From contig CATJZR010000035.1 in the NCBI GenBank assembly GCA_949745625.1, positions 1 to 36,788 on the forward strand: a stretch of 36,788 nt of DNA, read 5' to 3'. Numbering within the stretch: position 1 is the stretch's first letter; every line of letters begins with the position of its first letter. Position numbers and translations under genes: made by a program. Under the pieces are notes generated by a model that saw nothing but the letters and a program-made list of their open reading frames with translations, was not told the origin of the DNA and did no database searches. Below are positions 3,789 to 36,657 of this stretch, piece by piece. This stretch comes from an uncultured Eubacteriales bacterium (GTDB taxonomy: Bacteria > Bacillota > Clostridia > Christensenellales > Borkfalkiaceae).

Positions 3789-4763
3789 ATGAAATTTACC
3801 GAGCTTAAAAACGACTTGCCTAACGGCGCAAGAAGCATATACCTTCTCGAAGGCGACGACGCGTATTTTCGTATGAAGGGCGAAGATATGATAAAGTCTG
3901 CATTCGTGTCTATGCCCGAGTTGAATTTTACCGTAATGGACGGTGCCGCTCTCAAAGGCAACGCCCTTACGACGCTTGTTTCCGCAATAGAAAGCGTACC
4001 GTTTATGTCTGAAAAACGGCTCGTCAAGGTTACGGAATTTCACCCGAGCGACGCCGAATATGAAAAATATCTTAAAAAGACTTTTGATAATTTTCCTCAC
4101 GAAACTATTTTGCTTATAGTAAATTCCGAAGGTAAAAAAGGCGTAGAGTTAAAGCGCAAGGCGTGCGTTACGTTTGTAGACTGTAACTGTGCCGACGAGG
4201 AAACAGTTGCAAAATGGGCATATATAACGCTTAGAAACGCAGGCGTTTCCGTATCCGTCGAGGTGTGCACTTTAATAGCGCGGTATTGCCGCTGCAACAT
4301 GTCGCGCGTTGCACTTGAAGTCGAGAAAATAATCGACTATAAAAAAGAGGGCGAGCTGACGCGGGCAGAGGCGGACGCGCTTGTTTACAAGGACAACGAT
4401 TATAGAATTTACGAAATGACCAACGCCGTTGCCCGCCGCGATTTTGATACGTTTTCCGCAATCCAGACGGAGCTTTGTCGAAAATCCGGCGATGAAACTG
4501 CCGTGCTGTCGGGGTTGTTTTCGTACTTTAAAAATTTACTTACCGTGTTCGAGTCGGGCGGTAGCGACAGGCAACTTTCCGAGCTGCTTAAAATGAAAGA
4601 ATACGGCGTAAAAAAAAGCCGAGAACAGGCGCGCGCAATAGGCGCCGACAAACTTAAAAATTTGACGGCGGAAATTTATTCCGCTTTGACGGAGATAAAG
4701 TGCGGCAATCTAACGCCGCAAAGCGCCCTTCAAGCGGTAAACTGTAAAATATTTTTCACTTAA
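3789..4763 (+). CDS. holA: DNA polymerase III delta subunit (clamp-loader wrench)
   Basis: HolA opens the beta sliding clamp as part of the replicative clamp loader. The 324-residue length fits. The protein starts with the typical SIYLLEGDDAYFR block and shows the AAA+-like fold without a nucleotide site. It has the family features LVKVTEF at about residue 75, the RYCRCNMSRVALEVEKI region at about 165-185 and a helical C-terminal collar domain. It follows mnmE by 40 bp, has no Shine-Dalgarno sequence and carries a promoter-like element directly upstream. A long perfect terminator stem follows the stop. holA is often next to rpsT in Bacillota, but no rpsT is seen here. Confidence 0.93.
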   Translation: MKFTELKNDLPNGARSIYLLEGDDAYFRMKGEDMIKSAFVSMPELNFTVMDGAALKGNALTTLVSAIESVPFMSEKRLVKVTEFHPSDAEYEKYLKKTFDNFPHETILLIVNSEGKKGVELKRKACVTFVDCNCADEETVAKWAYITLRNAGVSVSVEVCTLIARYCRCNMSRVALEVEKIIDYKKEGELTRAEADALVYKDNDYRIYEMTNAVARRDFDTFSAIQTELCRKSGDETAVLSGLFSYFKNLLTVFESGGSDRQLSELLKMKEYGVKKSREQARAIGADKLKNLTAEIYSALTEIKCGNLTPQSALQAVNCKIFFT

Positions 4764-8294: not shown

Positions 8295-8795
8295 TTGAAG
8301 GCAATTTTACACGCTGACATCGAGTGGGGTATCGGCAAGCGCAATTCGCTTATGTTTAAAATCCCCGCGGATATGAAATTTTTCAAGGAAACTACTACGG
8401 GCAACGTCGTGGTTATGGGCTCTAATACTCTTAAATCGCTGCCGAACGGCAATCCGCTTAAAGACAGAATAAATATCGTGCTTTTTCCGAACGGTCAAAA
8501 GAGAGAGGACTGTACTGTTGTCGGTTCGCTTGACGAGCTGTTTGCCGAAATTAAAAAATATGATACCGACAGGGTTTTTGTTATCGGTGGGGCAATGATG
8601 TATAAAACGCTTTTGCCTTATTGCAGCGAGGTTCTCGTAACAAAGGTCGATGCGGTTGGCGGGGCGGACGTTTTCTTCGAAAACCTCGATAACAACGATT
8701 GTTTTGCGCTCGTTCGGGAAAGCGAGCCTATGGAAACGAACGGATTTCAAATAAGGTTTACTACATATAAAAATTTGTCGGTAAAGCCTCTGTAA
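8295..8795 (+). CDS. folA: Dihydrofolate reductase
   Basis: It reduces dihydrofolate, produced by ThyA, to tetrahydrofolate. The start is TTG at 8295, supported by GGGAGGAG ending 4 nt upstream. No better ATG precedes the conserved N-terminus. The 166-residue protein has the DHFR features: WGIGKRNSLMF, the catalytic Asp at residue 26 in IPADMKFFK, VVMGSNTLKSLP at about 39-50 and FVIGGAMMY at about 96. It lies 18 nt downstream of thyA and 5 nt upstream of the next membrane gene. Confidence 0.95.
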   Translation: MKAILHADIEWGIGKRNSLMFKIPADMKFFKETTTGNVVVMGSNTLKSLPNGNPLKDRINIVLFPNGQKREDCTVVGSLDELFAEIKKYDTDRVFVIGGAMMYKTLLPYCSEVLVTKVDAVGGADVFFENLDNNDCFALVRESEPMETNGFQIRFTTYKNLSVKPL

Positions 8796-31676: not shown

Positions 31677-33800
31677 ATGAAGAAAAAAACGATTGCGGCT
31701 ATTGCATTAACTTCGTGTCTGGCGCTTAGCGCTACGTTCACGGGTTGTTCGCTTGTTTCTACAAACAATAAGCTAGATATGGAACAGGTTATTGCACACG
31801 TCGATATTTCAAAATCCGACAAATTTGATACCGCCGAGCTTGAAATTTATAAAAGCGCGGTATCGTCGTCGCAGATAATAAAGAGGGAGCTTATTTCTTA
31901 CTTCCTCAACGTCGGTTATTCGTATATACAGAATGGTTCGACTTACGAAGAGACCTTCAATATGCTTATCGACGCGCTCGTCGACAATGCTGTGCTCGTC
32001 CAGTATTCCACGGTTGAGTTGCTAAAAGCAAATACTTCGGTTCTTTCCGATTTTACGAGTGAAACCGACGAAGCTAAAAAGTATGAGTTGCTACTTGATA
32101 ATCAAGAGATAAACCTTGCCACGTATAAGCTGTATTCTTCAATCAATTCGGCTATAGACAATTTTGAAAAGGATGTTATAGAAGAAGAGGACGGATACAA
32201 GGGAACTGCAACCAGAACTACTCCGACCAATCTAAATACCGAGCAGGATGATTATTATCCTTCTAAAACGGTTGACGGCAAAGAGGTCCTTGATTACGGT
32301 ATATATACGGGTTACGGCGATTACACTCTTGCAAACAGCGGCGCCTATCAGGACGACGCTTTGGATGGAACAACCCGTTCGACACGTATTAAGGCTTACA
32401 ACAGCTTTTTGAATAATCTGCGCCGCAACAACCTAGTTGACGGCGAAGCCGAAGCGGAAAATCTTACCGATATTCTTAAGCTCAATTATATACAGGTAGA
32501 ATATGTTTCGCAGCTTGAATCGCGCATTATCAATAAATATTACGATATTTACGAGGAAGAGCAGGAAGATAAGCTGCTTACTGATAATTATATAGAAAAC
32601 GTGTATAACGAAGTTTTGGCTTCGCAAACCGAAAATTACAGCAAGTCGGTTTCTTCGTTCGACAGCGCAATGAGCAGTATGTCGTCAAGCTCGTTTATCC
32701 TTTACTCGCCCGAAACGGACGACAGCGATTGGAATATCGAGTATGGCGAGAAGTTTGCGAAATTCGGTTTTATTTACAATATACTTCTGCCGTTCAGCTC
32801 GCGTCAGAGCATCCAGCTTAACGCGCTGAAAAGTATTCAGTCTGCCGACGGCGACGACAATTACTATTTTGCCGAGAGAAACAAGCTTTTAAAGAGCATT
32901 AAAACCGAGGACCAGCGTTCTGCTTGGTTCAACGGAGAAGAGGATTACAGCTTTAAGCCCGAAGAGGGTTTCGAGTATTACAGCGGCGGTAAAGATTATC
33001 GTAGCTATTTGTTCTTCGAGGATAATCTTACAGACAGTGAAGAGGGCGGAAGATACAAAAAGCTTCAAGCTTACGATGGCAGATATTCATATAACGGCCG
33101 CGTAATAGAAAACGAGGACGAAAGCTATACGCTTATTCCGAATAAGCTCGACATAGACGGTATGCTCAATGAATTTTCGGATTACGTTAATTATGTCGTC
33201 GGTTCTGACGTGGTCGAATATAAGAAGACTTCCGGCTATTACGACATTGAAAAGTTCGGCAAGATTGATAACGAGGACGAAATAGACTATTCCAAATTCA
33301 TTTACGCGGAAGGCAAGGTTAAGTTCGATTTTGATAATAAAAATCTTATGAAACCCGATTCTGAACAGTATAAGGCAATGAGTGCGGTTAACGAGCTTCA
33401 GTTTGCCTATACTACCGACACCAGCGTTCTTTCTAACTATATCGGTTATTCGGTTACAGCGTACGATACCAGTTATATCAAGGAATTCGAATATGCGGCA
33501 AAGAAGGCTGTCGGTGACGGCGTAGGCTCGTTCTCGGTTTGCGCAGGCGACTACGGCTGGCATCTGATTTACGTTACAAATGTATTCGATGCTGGCGAGA
33601 CCTACAAAAATCTTGACTGGGTCAACAACGTCAAGGTTGAGGGAACCTTTGAAAATCTGTTCTTTGAATGGATAAAGGGCAACGACCTTTCGGATATAAG
33701 CACTACACAGAGAACGAAAATTCTTAACGACTTTAATAAAGATACTACCGTTACAAAATATCAGAAAAGGTATCAAGACTTGCTTGATTTAGATAAATAA
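31677..33800 (+). CDS. Lipoprotein distantly like PrsA/SurA foldases
   Basis: This 707-residue exported lipoprotein has a signal peptide ending in FTGC with lipidated Cys24. Two regions hint at a SurA/PrsA-type folding factor. The N-terminal helical part (about 35-115) resembles a degenerate SurA N domain. Near residue 615-640 a GSFSVCAGDYGWHLIYV segment matches the end of a parvulin isomerase domain. The long middle is rich in Asp, Glu, Tyr and Ser and is not recognised. GGAG lies about 7 nt before the ATG. uppP overlaps its stop by one base. A role in folding secreted proteins is a hypothesis; isomerase activity is unproven and the catalytic half of the parvulin fold is not clear. Confidence 0.7.
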   Translation: MKKKTIAAIALTSCLALSATFTGCSLVSTNNKLDMEQVIAHVDISKSDKFDTAELEIYKSAVSSSQIIKRELISYFLNVGYSYIQNGSTYEETFNMLIDALVDNAVLVQYSTVELLKANTSVLSDFTSETDEAKKYELLLDNQEINLATYKLYSSINSAIDNFEKDVIEEEDGYKGTATRTTPTNLNTEQDDYYPSKTVDGKEVLDYGIYTGYGDYTLANSGAYQDDALDGTTRSTRIKAYNSFLNNLRRNNLVDGEAEAENLTDILKLNYIQVEYVSQLESRIINKYYDIYEEEQEDKLLTDNYIENVYNEVLASQTENYSKSVSSFDSAMSSMSSSSFILYSPETDDSDWNIEYGEKFAKFGFIYNILLPFSSRQSIQLNALKSIQSADGDDNYYFAERNKLLKSIKTEDQRSAWFNGEEDYSFKPEEGFEYYSGGKDYRSYLFFEDNLTDSEEGGRYKKLQAYDGRYSYNGRVIENEDESYTLIPNKLDIDGMLNEFSDYVNYVVGSDVVEYKKTSGYYDIEKFGKIDNEDEIDYSKFIYAEGKVKFDFDNKNLMKPDSEQYKAMSAVNELQFAYTTDTSVLSNYIGYSVTAYDTSYIKEFEYAAKKAVGDGVGSFSVCAGDYGWHLIYVTNVFDAGETYKNLDWVNNVKVEGTFENLFFEWIKGNDLSDISTTQRTKILNDFNKDTTVTKYQKRYQDLLDLDK

Positions 33801-34612
33801 TGGAAATCTGGCAGGCTATAGTATTAGGTCTTACTCAAGGATTAACCGAATTTCTGCCAGTATCGTCAAGCGGACATTTGGCGTTTATGATGCGAGTGTT
33901 CGGAATACAGCAGGGTGGATTGTTCTTTTCGATAATTTTGCATCTCGGAACATTGGTTGCCGTGTGCGTGGTGTATTACAGGGATATAATCGCGCTTTTT
34001 AAAAAGCCGTTTAAAACCTTGGGTTTTTTGGTAATCGCTTCGATACCCGCTGCGATAGTCGGCTTTTTACTCGAAGACGTGATAGACGAGCATTTGCTCG
34101 GCTCGGCTCATTTGGGAATAATACTCGCCGTATTCTTTACCGTAACGGCGTCTGTATTGTTTGTAACCGAAATTTTTGCAAAAAGGCGTCAAAACGAGCT
34201 TCCGCTTTGTTGGCGTACTATAATCCCTATGGGCGTTGCACAGGCAGTTGCGGTGCTTCCCGGAATTTCAAGAAGCGGTTCGACGATATGCGCCGGTACG
34301 TTTGCGGGCGGAAAAAGCGAAGAGGTTGCGAAATTTTCGTTCTTAATGAGTATCCCCGTAATTTTGGGCAGCTTCGTCGTATCGCTTGCCAAGGGACTTT
34401 ATAAAGGCGAAATACAAGCCGACTTTGCCGCAAACGGCTCTGTATACGGTTGGTGCATAGCTCTCGGTTTTATAATTTCCGCGATTTCGGGTCTTGTTGC
34501 AATAAAAGTTATGCTTAAAGTAATTCAAAAGGCTAATTATAAGTGGTTCAGCTTATATCTCGTGCTTTTGGCAATAGTGTGCATAATTTTATATTGCTGC
34601 AATAGTTTTTAA
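33800..34612 (+). CDS. uppP: Undecaprenyl-diphosphate phosphatase UppP (BacA)
   Basis: It dephosphorylates undecaprenyl pyrophosphate to recycle the lipid carrier for cell-wall synthesis, and its activity underlies bacitracin tolerance. The 270-residue membrane protein has the two inverted active-site motifs: GLTQGLTEFLPVSSSGHL at about residues 10-27 and VLPGISRSGSTI at about 152-163. The ATG overlaps the upstream stop by one base, so it is coupled to the lipoprotein gene. A strong terminator follows. Confidence 0.97.
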   Translation: MEIWQAIVLGLTQGLTEFLPVSSSGHLAFMMRVFGIQQGGLFFSIILHLGTLVAVCVVYYRDIIALFKKPFKTLGFLVIASIPAAIVGFLLEDVIDEHLLGSAHLGIILAVFFTVTASVLFVTEIFAKRRQNELPLCWRTIIPMGVAQAVAVLPGISRSGSTICAGTFAGGKSEEVAKFSFLMSIPVILGSFVVSLAKGLYKGEIQADFAANGSVYGWCIALGFIISAISGLVAIKVMLKVIQKANYKWFSLYLVLLAIVCIILYCCNSF

Positions 34613-34623
34613 AATACTTAAAA

Positions 34624-34648
34624 GAACGGTAAATAAACCGTTCTTTTT
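34624..34648 (+). terminator. Rho-independent terminator after uppP
   Basis: A 7-bp perfect stem (GAACGGT / ACCGTTC), extended by A-T pairs, encloses a 6-nt loop and is followed by TTTTT. It ends 2 nt before the -35 box of the next gene. Confidence 0.88.
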
Positions 34649-34650
34649 AC

Positions 34651-34681
34651 TTGACAAATATTTTAGGGGGGGGGGTATAAT
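34651..34681 (+). promoter_or_regulatory. Poly-G spacer promoter of the ABC exporter (candidate phase-variable switch)
   Basis: A perfect -35 TTGACA (34651-34656) and a perfect -10 TATAAT (34676-34681) are separated by 19 nt, the last ten of which are all G (34666-34675) and abut the -10. The optimum spacer is 17, so gain or loss of G by slippage would change promoter strength. Predicted transcription starts near 34688, which leaves about 24 nt of leader before the ATG at 34712. Confidence 0.75.
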
Positions 34682-34711
34682 TAAATGGAAAATTCTAAGG
34701 ACGGAGTACAA

Positions 34712-35488
34712 ATGGAAGAAATTTTGAAGGTAGAAAACTTAACTAAGACATTCAAGCTTTCAAAAAAACAGCAAAAGCTTGAGCGTACGCAGACCAAAGT
34801 CAAGGTGGCTGTGGATAAGCTGTCTTTTACGGCTTATAAGGGTGAAATATTCGGTTTGCTCGGTCCGAACGGCGCGGGCAAGACGACTACGCTCAGAATG
34901 TTGGCTACGCTTATTAAGCCGGACAGCGGAGACGCGTTTATTGACGGCAAAAGTATAATCACGCAGGAGGATGAGGTTCGCCGCAAAATCGGATTTTTGA
35001 CCAGCGAATTAAAGCTGGAAGATTTTTTCACGCCGAACTATCTTTTTAACTTTTTCGGCGAGCTTTACGGAATGGAAAAATCAGTGATAGCCGAGCGAAG
35101 AAAACAGCTTTTTGAAAGGTTTGGCATCGATAAGTTTGCGGAAGTGAAATTTTCAAGCCTTTCAACTGGTATGAAGCAAAAGGTTTCGCTTGTGGTATCT
35201 ATCGTTCACGACCCCGAGTTTATCATTTTCGACGAGCCGACTAACGGACTTGACGTGCTTACGGCGAAGGTGGTAACGGATTTTTTAACCGAACTGAAAA
35301 GTGACGGAAAAACGATAATTCTTTCAACTCATATTTTCAGCCTGATAGAAAAGCTTTGCGATAGAGTCGGTATAATAATAAACGGCAAACTTGCAAAAAT
35401 AGACACGCTTGAAAATCTGACAAAGCAGAGCAGTCTTGAAGATACCTTTTTCGGCATTTACAAAGAGGTTGCGGGGGACATATTATGA
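34712..35488 (+). CDS. natA: ABC transporter ATP-binding protein, NatA-like
   Basis: This is the ATPase of an ABC-2 exporter. The ATG at 34712 is preferred because GGAG lies 5 nt upstream. An in-frame ATG at 34685 is only 3 nt from the -10 box and probably is not transcribed. The resulting 258 residues contain Walker A GPNGAGKTT at 51-59, the signature LSTGMKQK, Walker B FIIFDEP with NGLDV, and the switch His in STHIF. A basic Lys/Gln-rich stretch (residues 15-32) is inserted in the N-terminal strand. It overlaps the permease gene by 4 bp. NatA exports sodium in Bacillus, but the substrate here is not proven. Confidence 0.85.
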   Translation: MEEILKVENLTKTFKLSKKQQKLERTQTKVKVAVDKLSFTAYKGEIFGLLGPNGAGKTTTLRMLATLIKPDSGDAFIDGKSIITQEDEVRRKIGFLTSELKLEDFFTPNYLFNFFGELYGMEKSVIAERRKQLFERFGIDKFAEVKFSSLSTGMKQKVSLVVSIVHDPEFIIFDEPTNGLDVLTAKVVTDFLTELKSDGKTIILSTHIFSLIEKLCDRVGIIINGKLAKIDTLENLTKQSSLEDTFFGIYKEVAGDIL

Positions 35489-36621
35489 GAAACGTAATAG
35501 CGGTTTTAAAAAAGGAATTTGCCCGTTTCTTTAAGGACAGAAGAATGGTAATGTCCATTTTCTTGCCAGGAATAATGATTTTTTTGGTATATACCGTAAT
35601 GGGCACGGTAATGGCGGAGGTCAACAAGCCTGACGAAAATTATAAATATACGACCTACGTTGAAAATATCCCGCAAGATTCGGCACTGGCTGCGGTGCTG
35701 AACGCGACGCTTGATTTTAAGGAATACGAATCGGCGGATAAGGCTAAGCAGGCGGTTGCCGATGGCGAGCTGGACCTTGCCATTATATTTCCCGTAAACT
35801 TTAACGAAAACGCTGACGGCGAAGCAGTGCCGAACGTGAGCGTTTATTACAATTTGGCGAACGACAATTCTTCAAACGGTTTCACGATTGTAAGCAGTAT
35901 ATTCGAAGAATTTAAAAAGCCGTCGTTTACGGTCAATAACGGCGAAAACGGCAACCTTGCCGAGGACCGCGCGACCGTAGGCAAAATTCTTTCTATGATT
36001 ATGCCCATGCTGATGTTTTCGCTTTTGGCGTCGGGCTGTATAGCGTTTGCGCCCGAATCGATTGCGGGCGAGAAGGAGCGCGGTACTCTTTCAACCGTAC
36101 TGATTACACCCATAAAGCGGTGGCAGCTTGCCTTCGGCAAAATAATCAGTCTTGCGTGTTTTGCTACTTTAAGCGGACTTTCTAGCTTTATAGGCTTGAT
36201 TTTATCGCTTCCTAAATTTATGAACGGAATAGTTTCGGGCGATACCATGATGTACTATTCGGTGGGCGATTATTTTATGCTGTTTGCCCTTATAATCTCG
36301 GTAGTTCTCGTAATAATTTCCGCGTTTTCGATAGTGTCGGCATTTGCAAAGACTGTAAAGGAGGCAAACTCGCTGATTGCGCCGCTTATGATTGTTATTA
36401 TATTAATGGGTGTCTTTTCGATGTTTACGGCTACTCCTGCGCTCGGAATGTATGCAATACCGTTGCTCGGCAGCGGACTGGCGTTCTCGTCGATAATGAC
36501 GTTTACGGTTTCACCGCTTGGCTTTGCACTGTCTGTTATTTCTAATTTGGCGGTGGCGGCGGTGCTTATCGTACTTTTAAGCTTTATGTTCAAAAGCGAG
36601 CGTATAATGTTCAACAGATAA
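35485..36621 (+). CDS. natB: ABC-2 type permease, NatB-like
   Basis: This 378-residue membrane partner of the upstream ATPase has one N-terminal helix (about 22-45, with the FLPGIMIFLVYTVMG pattern). A large extracytoplasmic domain of about 130 residues follows, then a cluster of five to six helices from about 170 to 375, the layout of NatB/ABC2_membrane_3 proteins. The cytoplasmic EKERGTLSTVLITPIKRWQL loop is highly characteristic of this permease class and contacts the ATPase. It overlaps the ATPase gene by ATGA and ends in a bidirectional terminator. Sodium or small-toxin export is possible; specificity is unknown. Confidence 0.85.
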   Translation: MRNVIAVLKKEFARFFKDRRMVMSIFLPGIMIFLVYTVMGTVMAEVNKPDENYKYTTYVENIPQDSALAAVLNATLDFKEYESADKAKQAVADGELDLAIIFPVNFNENADGEAVPNVSVYYNLANDNSSNGFTIVSSIFEEFKKPSFTVNNGENGNLAEDRATVGKILSMIMPMLMFSLLASGCIAFAPESIAGEKERGTLSTVLITPIKRWQLAFGKIISLACFATLSGLSSFIGLILSLPKFMNGIVSGDTMMYYSVGDYFMLFALIISVVLVIISAFSIVSAFAKTVKEANSLIAPLMIVIILMGVFSMFTATPALGMYAIPLLGSGLAFSSIMTFTVSPLGFALSVISNLAVAAVLIVLLSFMFKSERIMFNR

Positions 36622-36627
36622 AAAATT

Positions 36628-36657
36628 AACCGTCCGATAATCGGACGGTTATTTTTT
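36628..36657. terminator. Bidirectional terminator between the exporter and SRP RNA
   Basis: A near-perfect palindromic stem (AACCGTCCGAT / ATCGGACGGTT, 36628-36650) is followed by TATTTTTT on the plus strand and, on the minus strand, by AATTTTTT. It can serve both the permease gene and the SRP RNA coming from the other side. Confidence 0.85.

What the first reader, a model, noticed from the sequence alone, without database searches (positions are those of the whole stretch)
34651..34681. Ten-G tract inside a consensus promoter: likely phase-variable ABC exporter
The -35 (TTGACA) and -10 (TATAAT) are both perfect, yet the spacer is 19 nt because a run of ten G residues abuts the -10. Slippage in such tracts is known to switch promoter strength (Neisseria porA is the standard case: poly-G between -35 and -10). 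At 8 G the spacer would be the optimal 17, at 10 G it is weak. Promoter-spacer G tracts are rare in Bacillota. A surface-acting exporter under phase variation would give population heterogeneity in toxin or ion resistance.
Basis: partly seen in the sequence, partly recalled or inferred. Interest (0 to 1): 0.78.

Follow-up and report, generated by a model that had tools for sequence, protein, structure and literature searches.

The report
Slippery G-run promoter driving an exporter
A run of ten Gs sits between the two halves of a gut bacterium's exporter promoter, and because related bacteria carry the same kind of G-run in the promoters of many surface lipoproteins and transporters, with lengths that differ between species, it looks like part of a lineage-wide random on/off switching system, although switching itself has not been observed.

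Summary
It is not a one-off. In the same GTDB family, TTGAC...Gn-TATAAT promoters are common (140/398 genomes at n>=5; reversed control 3 hits). Run lengths are bimodal (n=5, then n=9-10). Promoters with n>=8 have scattered spacers (13-21) and mostly drive lipoproteins or transporters; n=5-6 promoters keep 17-18 and drive housekeeping genes. In other Bacillota the n>=8 form is essentially absent (1 of 398). Exporter orthologs in several other species have a tract, or an assembly break exactly at it; eight syntenic relatives instead have an adjacent XRE regulator whose putative operator fills the same 17-nt spacer. Near-identical promoters in sister species differ by one G. The best reading is slippage-driven promoter phase variation of the porA type, deployed lineage-wide in gut Clostridia. 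Switching within a population, and its effect on transcription, are inferred, not shown.

The parts
33800..34612 (+). uppP/bacA undecaprenyl-diphosphatase, conserved upstream neighbour (not part of the exporter operon)
   Evidence: Pfam BacA 3e-64; the same neighbour in many genus orthologs
34620..34647 (.). terminator-like hairpin (GAACGGT...ACCGTTC, T-run) that insulates the exporter promoter from uppP; conserved in sister species G056
   Evidence: L187 sequence
34651..34656 (+). -35 box TTGACA (perfect)
34657..34675 (+). 19-nt spacer AATATTTTA-G10
34666..34675 (+). G10 tract, inferred slippage switch
   Evidence: family-wide class
34676..34681 (+). -10 box TATAAT (perfect)
34697..34706 (+). 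ribosome-binding site AAGGACGGAG
   Evidence: read from sequence
34712..35488 (+). ABC exporter ATPase (258 aa; Walker A GPNGAGKTT, Walker B IIFDEP)
   Evidence: Pfam ABC_tran 2e-28; nearest NCBIfam DrrA, below cut-off
35485..36621 (+). ABC-2 permease, overlapping the ATPase stop by 4 nt
   Evidence: Pfam ABC2_membrane_2/3 about 1e-20
36627..36651 (+). terminator at the end of the two-gene operon
   Evidence: 11-pair stem followed by a T-run

Best explanation
The G10 tract is a slippage-prone spacer in a housekeeping-sigma promoter. Replication slippage adds or removes single Gs, moving the -35/-10 spacing between about 17 (near-optimal, 8 G) and 19 or more (weak, 10 G), so cells in a population express the ABC exporter operon at different levels. 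It belongs to a lineage-wide set of promoter-spacer G tracts in this Clostridia family and some sister families that mainly drive surface lipoproteins, secreted proteins and ABC transporters. At this locus the tract stands where related species have an XRE-family regulator gene and its putative operator, so stochastic switching appears to have replaced regulator-based control. Shown: the sequence anatomy, family-wide recurrence, bimodal length, scattered spacer, target bias, differences between species, and the regulator/tract alternation. Inferred: slippage within a population, the ON and OFF lengths, and the fitness role.
For: Family search: 140/398 genomes with TTGACN{6,18}G5TATAAT against 3 reversed-control hits. 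Run lengths 5:60, 6:10, 7:4, 8:5, 9:51, 10:17, 11:2, 15:1. Spacer SD 1.68 (8 or more G) against 0.85 (5-6 G), Levene p 3e-7; exactly 17 nt in 12% against 71%. Tracts also occur next to the -35 or mid-spacer; over 100 matches in 32 mostly tract-rich genomes, reversed control 0. Targets: lipoproteins 37/64 against 3/40 for short-G promoters (Fisher 1e-7), controls being IlvC, ArgG, RpoB, MnmA and similar. Order: 35/297 genomes; rest of phylum 1/398. Near-identical promoters differing by one G: G095/G110 with 98% protein identity; G220 paralogs on one contig with G10 and G9. Exporter orthologs with tract: G066 (G9), G093 (G10), G132 (G9); G056 and G059 contigs break exactly at the tract, matching the reported Illumina 'G's end' artefact at G tracts (PMC9187656). 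porA has 9-11 G between -35 and -10 with graded expression (PMC3639595).
Against: No read-level or isolate data: within-population variation was not seen. Several duplicated promoters keep the same length (G589 four copies at G10, G141 two at G9, G597 two at G9). MutS is present, so slippage is not accelerated by loss of mismatch repair. The genomes are MAGs, so G-run lengths may be off by one. Most genus exporter orthologs lack a tract.
Confidence: 0.8

Rival explanations
1. The G tract is a stable structural or regulatory element (stiff G-run spacer, G-quadruplex, or protein site) that sets promoter strength, with no meaningful switching.
For: G9 dominates (51 of 76 tracts of 8 or more) and some duplicated copies share one length.
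Against: The tract floats within the spacer (next to -35, middle, next to -10), spacer length is scattered, orthologs with identical flanks differ by one G, and similar tracts occur inside reading frames. A fixed site or fixed spacing would predict the opposite.
Confidence: 0.12
2. Neutral accident: slippage grew a G run in a spacer where it was tolerated; the exporter is simply weakly expressed.
For: G runs of 9 or more also occur in coding and 3' regions of the same genomes.
Against: Strong bias to lipoprotein and transporter genes relative to short-G promoters; near absence in the rest of the phylum; orthologous exporters in two genera carry a tract.
Confidence: 0.06
3. Sequencing or assembly artefact (two-colour poly-G calls).
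For: Poly-C artefacts do cap contigs at this locus in G056 and G059.
Against: The window tract is internal to a contig with correct flanks on both sides; the same architecture recurs in well over a hundred separate assemblies, with a reversed control near zero.
Confidence: 0.02

Closest known systems
Neisseria meningitidis porA (also opc, fetA) promoter-spacer homopolymer
   Same: G/C homopolymer of about 9-11 between -35 and -10; length change alters the level of expression (PMC3639595; PMC2791445)
   Different: Gram-negative pathogen, a few outer-membrane genes; here gut Clostridia, many lipoprotein and ABC transporter promoters per lineage, tract at variable positions in the spacer, consensus TTGACA/TATAAT; switching not yet demonstrated
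Bifidobacterium breve G-tract replication slippage (sortase pili)
   Same: G tracts in a Gram-positive gut commensal; authors mention promoter-spacer G tracts in passing; the same Illumina 'G's end' behaviour (PMC9187656)
   Different: The demonstrated case is an intragenic frameshift, in Actinomycetota
Invertible-promoter phase variation in gut bacteria and Clostridioides difficile
   Same: Stochastic promoter switching in gut bacteria (PMC11868660)
   Different: Site-specific inversion with recombinases; none is needed here
DrrAB/NatAB-type ABC-2 exporters
   Same: ATPase plus ABC-2 permease pair
   Different: All NCBIfam scores below curated cut-offs; substrate unknown

Membership tests
porA-type promoter-spacer homopolymer phase variation | homopolymer between -35 and -10 | tested here: met
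porA-type promoter-spacer homopolymer phase variation | tract length differs among related genomes with conserved flanks | tested here: met
   G095/G110 promoters identical except G9/G10; G220 paralogs G10/G9; at the exporter itself window G10 against G066 G9, with less conserved flanks
porA-type promoter-spacer homopolymer phase variation | length varies within one population | not testable with these tools
   no reads; one genome per species
porA-type promoter-spacer homopolymer phase variation | transcription changes with tract length | not testable with these tools
   needs reporter or RNA data
porA-type promoter-spacer homopolymer phase variation | controls surface or envelope functions | tested here: met
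   37/64 lipoproteins family-wide against 3/40 control; window operon is a membrane exporter
MerR-type long-spacer (19-20 bp) activated promoter | dyad operator within the long spacer | tested here: not met
   spacer AATATTTTA-G10 has no dyad
XRE-operator regulated exporter (state of related species) | divergent XRE gene plus GAACA..TGTTC dyad in the promoter spacer | tested here: not met
   present in 8 genus orthologs, absent at the window locus; best XRE match elsewhere in this incomplete genome 48%
DrrAB/NatAB-type ABC-2 exporter | ABC ATPase with adjacent ABC-2 permease | tested here: met
DrrAB/NatAB-type ABC-2 exporter | named subfamily cut-off reached | tested here: not met
   DrrA 223 bits against cut-off 312

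The most novel reading that the evidence does not exclude
A whole lineage of gut Clostridia (this family plus about three sister families of the order) runs a multi-locus set of phase-variable promoters made of G tracts in the -35/-10 spacer, switching lipoproteins and ABC exporters combinatorially, and at the exporter locus the tract alternates in evolution with an XRE repressor and its operator: random switching substituting for sensing.
Probability: 0.65. Interest if true: 0.75.

Novelty: new member of a known kind. Interest (0 to 1): 0.64.

Why it matters
Phase variation described so far in gut Clostridia is mostly DNA inversion. A lineage-wide set of slippage promoters would be a second, recombinase-free route to surface and exporter heterogeneity in mostly uncultured gut bacteria. 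Tract length can be read from sequence, so ON/OFF states could be scored directly in deep metagenomes. The XRE-operator versus G-tract alternation at one locus is a natural test of when bacteria bet-hedge rather than sense.

Tried and rejected
Lengths on two contigs of G204 (C74 G8, C88 G7) first looked like strain variants; alignment shows a 114-bp promoter cassette at two different loci, so paralogs. Loss of mismatch repair as the cause: rejected, MutS is present in G000 and in 54 of 55 other genomes tested. MerR-type activation of a 19-nt spacer: no dyad. Fixed element next to -10: rejected because the tract position floats. My first upstream scans of exporter orthologs read minus-strand loci from the wrong end; they were redone. 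Literature searches found no report of these promoters in this lineage, but the library is open-access only.

Full report
Observation. The sequence is as described: TTGACA 34651-34656, AATATTTTA plus ten G (19-nt spacer), TATAAT 34676-34681. It is the only perfect promoter of its kind in the window and the only G10 in the genome, where two other G9 runs exist. The start codon is 34712, not 34685. The operon is ATPase plus ABC-2 permease, with a terminator-like hairpin on each side, so expression should depend on this promoter.

Not a one-off. I searched the pattern TTGAC...GGGGG-TATAAT in 398 genomes of the same family: 140 have it, against 3 hits in total for the reversed pattern. In the 150 listed promoters (the list was cut there), G-run lengths are bimodal: 60 with 5, falling to 4-5 with 7-8, then 51 with 9 and 17 with 10. 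Extrapolating the 5-to-6 decline would give under one run of 8 or more. Promoters with 8 or more G have spacers from 13 to 21 (SD 1.68; 12% exactly 17); those with 5-6 G stay mostly at 17-18 (SD 0.85; 71% exactly 17; Levene p 3e-7). The tract can sit next to -35, mid-spacer, or next to -10. This fits a spacing switch better than a fixed binding site.

Targets. The first gene after 64 tract promoters of the family is a predicted lipoprotein in 37 cases; after 40 short-G promoters it is a lipoprotein in 3 (Fisher 1e-7), the rest being genes such as ilvC, argG, rpoB and mnmA (names from sequence recognition, not a database search). The lipobox call is crude but was applied equally; the control holds several ilvC orthologs and the tract set also holds orthologs, so counts are not fully independent. 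Non-lipoprotein targets include several ABC transporters, a glycosyltransferase and a glycoside hydrolase. In sister families the tract promoters also drive lipoproteins and ABC transporters.

Distribution. With 8 or more G: 35 of 297 genomes across the order, mostly four families, reversed control zero; outside the order 1 of 398. So the class is clade-restricted. By record titles the genus includes 'Candidatus Coproplasma'; the family name is not given by the tools.

The exporter locus. Tract promoters precede its orthologs in G066 (G9, spacer 18), G093 (G10, 20) and G132 (G9, 19). In G056 and G059 the contig ends exactly at the tract, capped by artefactual poly-C; in G056 the other side of the break carries uppP, the same hairpin and a G11 run, with error-prone flanking bases. 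That artefact matches what was reported for Illumina reads through G tracts (PMC9187656). Eight other genus members keep a 68-aa divergent HTH_3 (XRE) gene between uppP and the exporter, with two GAACA..TGTTC dyads, one inside a 17-nt spacer of the exporter promoter. On the ATPase tree tract and XRE species interleave, with a poorly resolved backbone, so the two control modes seem to have exchanged more than once. G000 has no close copy of that regulator (best 48%; the genome is 86% complete).

Length change. G095 and G110 share a promoter identical over all compared flanking bases except G9 against G10 (98% identical protein); G136/G157 and G576/G622 pairs also differ by one G. G220 has paralogous promoters on one contig with G10 and G9. 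Other duplicates keep one length. These are differences between species or paralogs; variation within a clone was not testable here.

Mechanism and standing. Best explanation: slippage changes the spacer and hence promoter strength, as in porA, where a G tract between -35 and -10 gives graded expression (PMC3639595) and is thought to alter sigma-factor binding (PMC2791445). The assembled 10-G allele is predicted weak and 8-9 G stronger; this follows from the known optimum of about 17 nt, not from data here. Mechanistically this is a new member of a known kind; what is new is its lineage-wide use in gut Clostridia and the exchange with a regulator. I found no earlier report in the open-access library.

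Noticed in passing
G000 contig C32, about 4730-4738 (- strand; L194, L002): G9 run in frame just before the signal peptide of a secreted protein (HKNI-GGG-YAPC...): a candidate frameshift switch in the window's own genome.
   Followed up: partly
G000 contig C144, 1753-1761 (L195): Nine-base C/G run just after a gene's stop codon, beside a hairpin; purpose unclear.
   Followed up: partly
L098, L100, L104, L106, L109 and others, upstream of exporter: 68-aa XRE regulator with two GAACA..TGTTC dyads, one inside the exporter promoter spacer.
   Followed up: yes
G071 C5 about 83229 (L166); G072 C49 7487 and 8357 (L172, L173): Intragenic G9-11 runs at or near the starts of genes, one right after a lipobox cysteine: candidate frameshift switches.
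   Followed up: partly
G589 C10, C30, C33, C38; G204 C74/C88; G220 C159; G141 C24: Tract-promoter cassettes duplicated within genomes, some in near-identical copies.
   Followed up: partly
G196 C7 about 34229 (L316): mutS reads as two adjacent pieces in different frames in a tract-bearing genome; frameshift or assembly error.
   Followed up: partly
window 31677-33800: 707-aa ORF upstream of uppP with no Pfam or NCBIfam match; a large ORF occupies the same place in relatives.
   Followed up: no
G060 C77 about 8671-8698 (L190): Two facing tracts GGGGGGGGGGG-TATACG-CCCCCCCCC near a contig end; may be an artefact.
   Followed up: no
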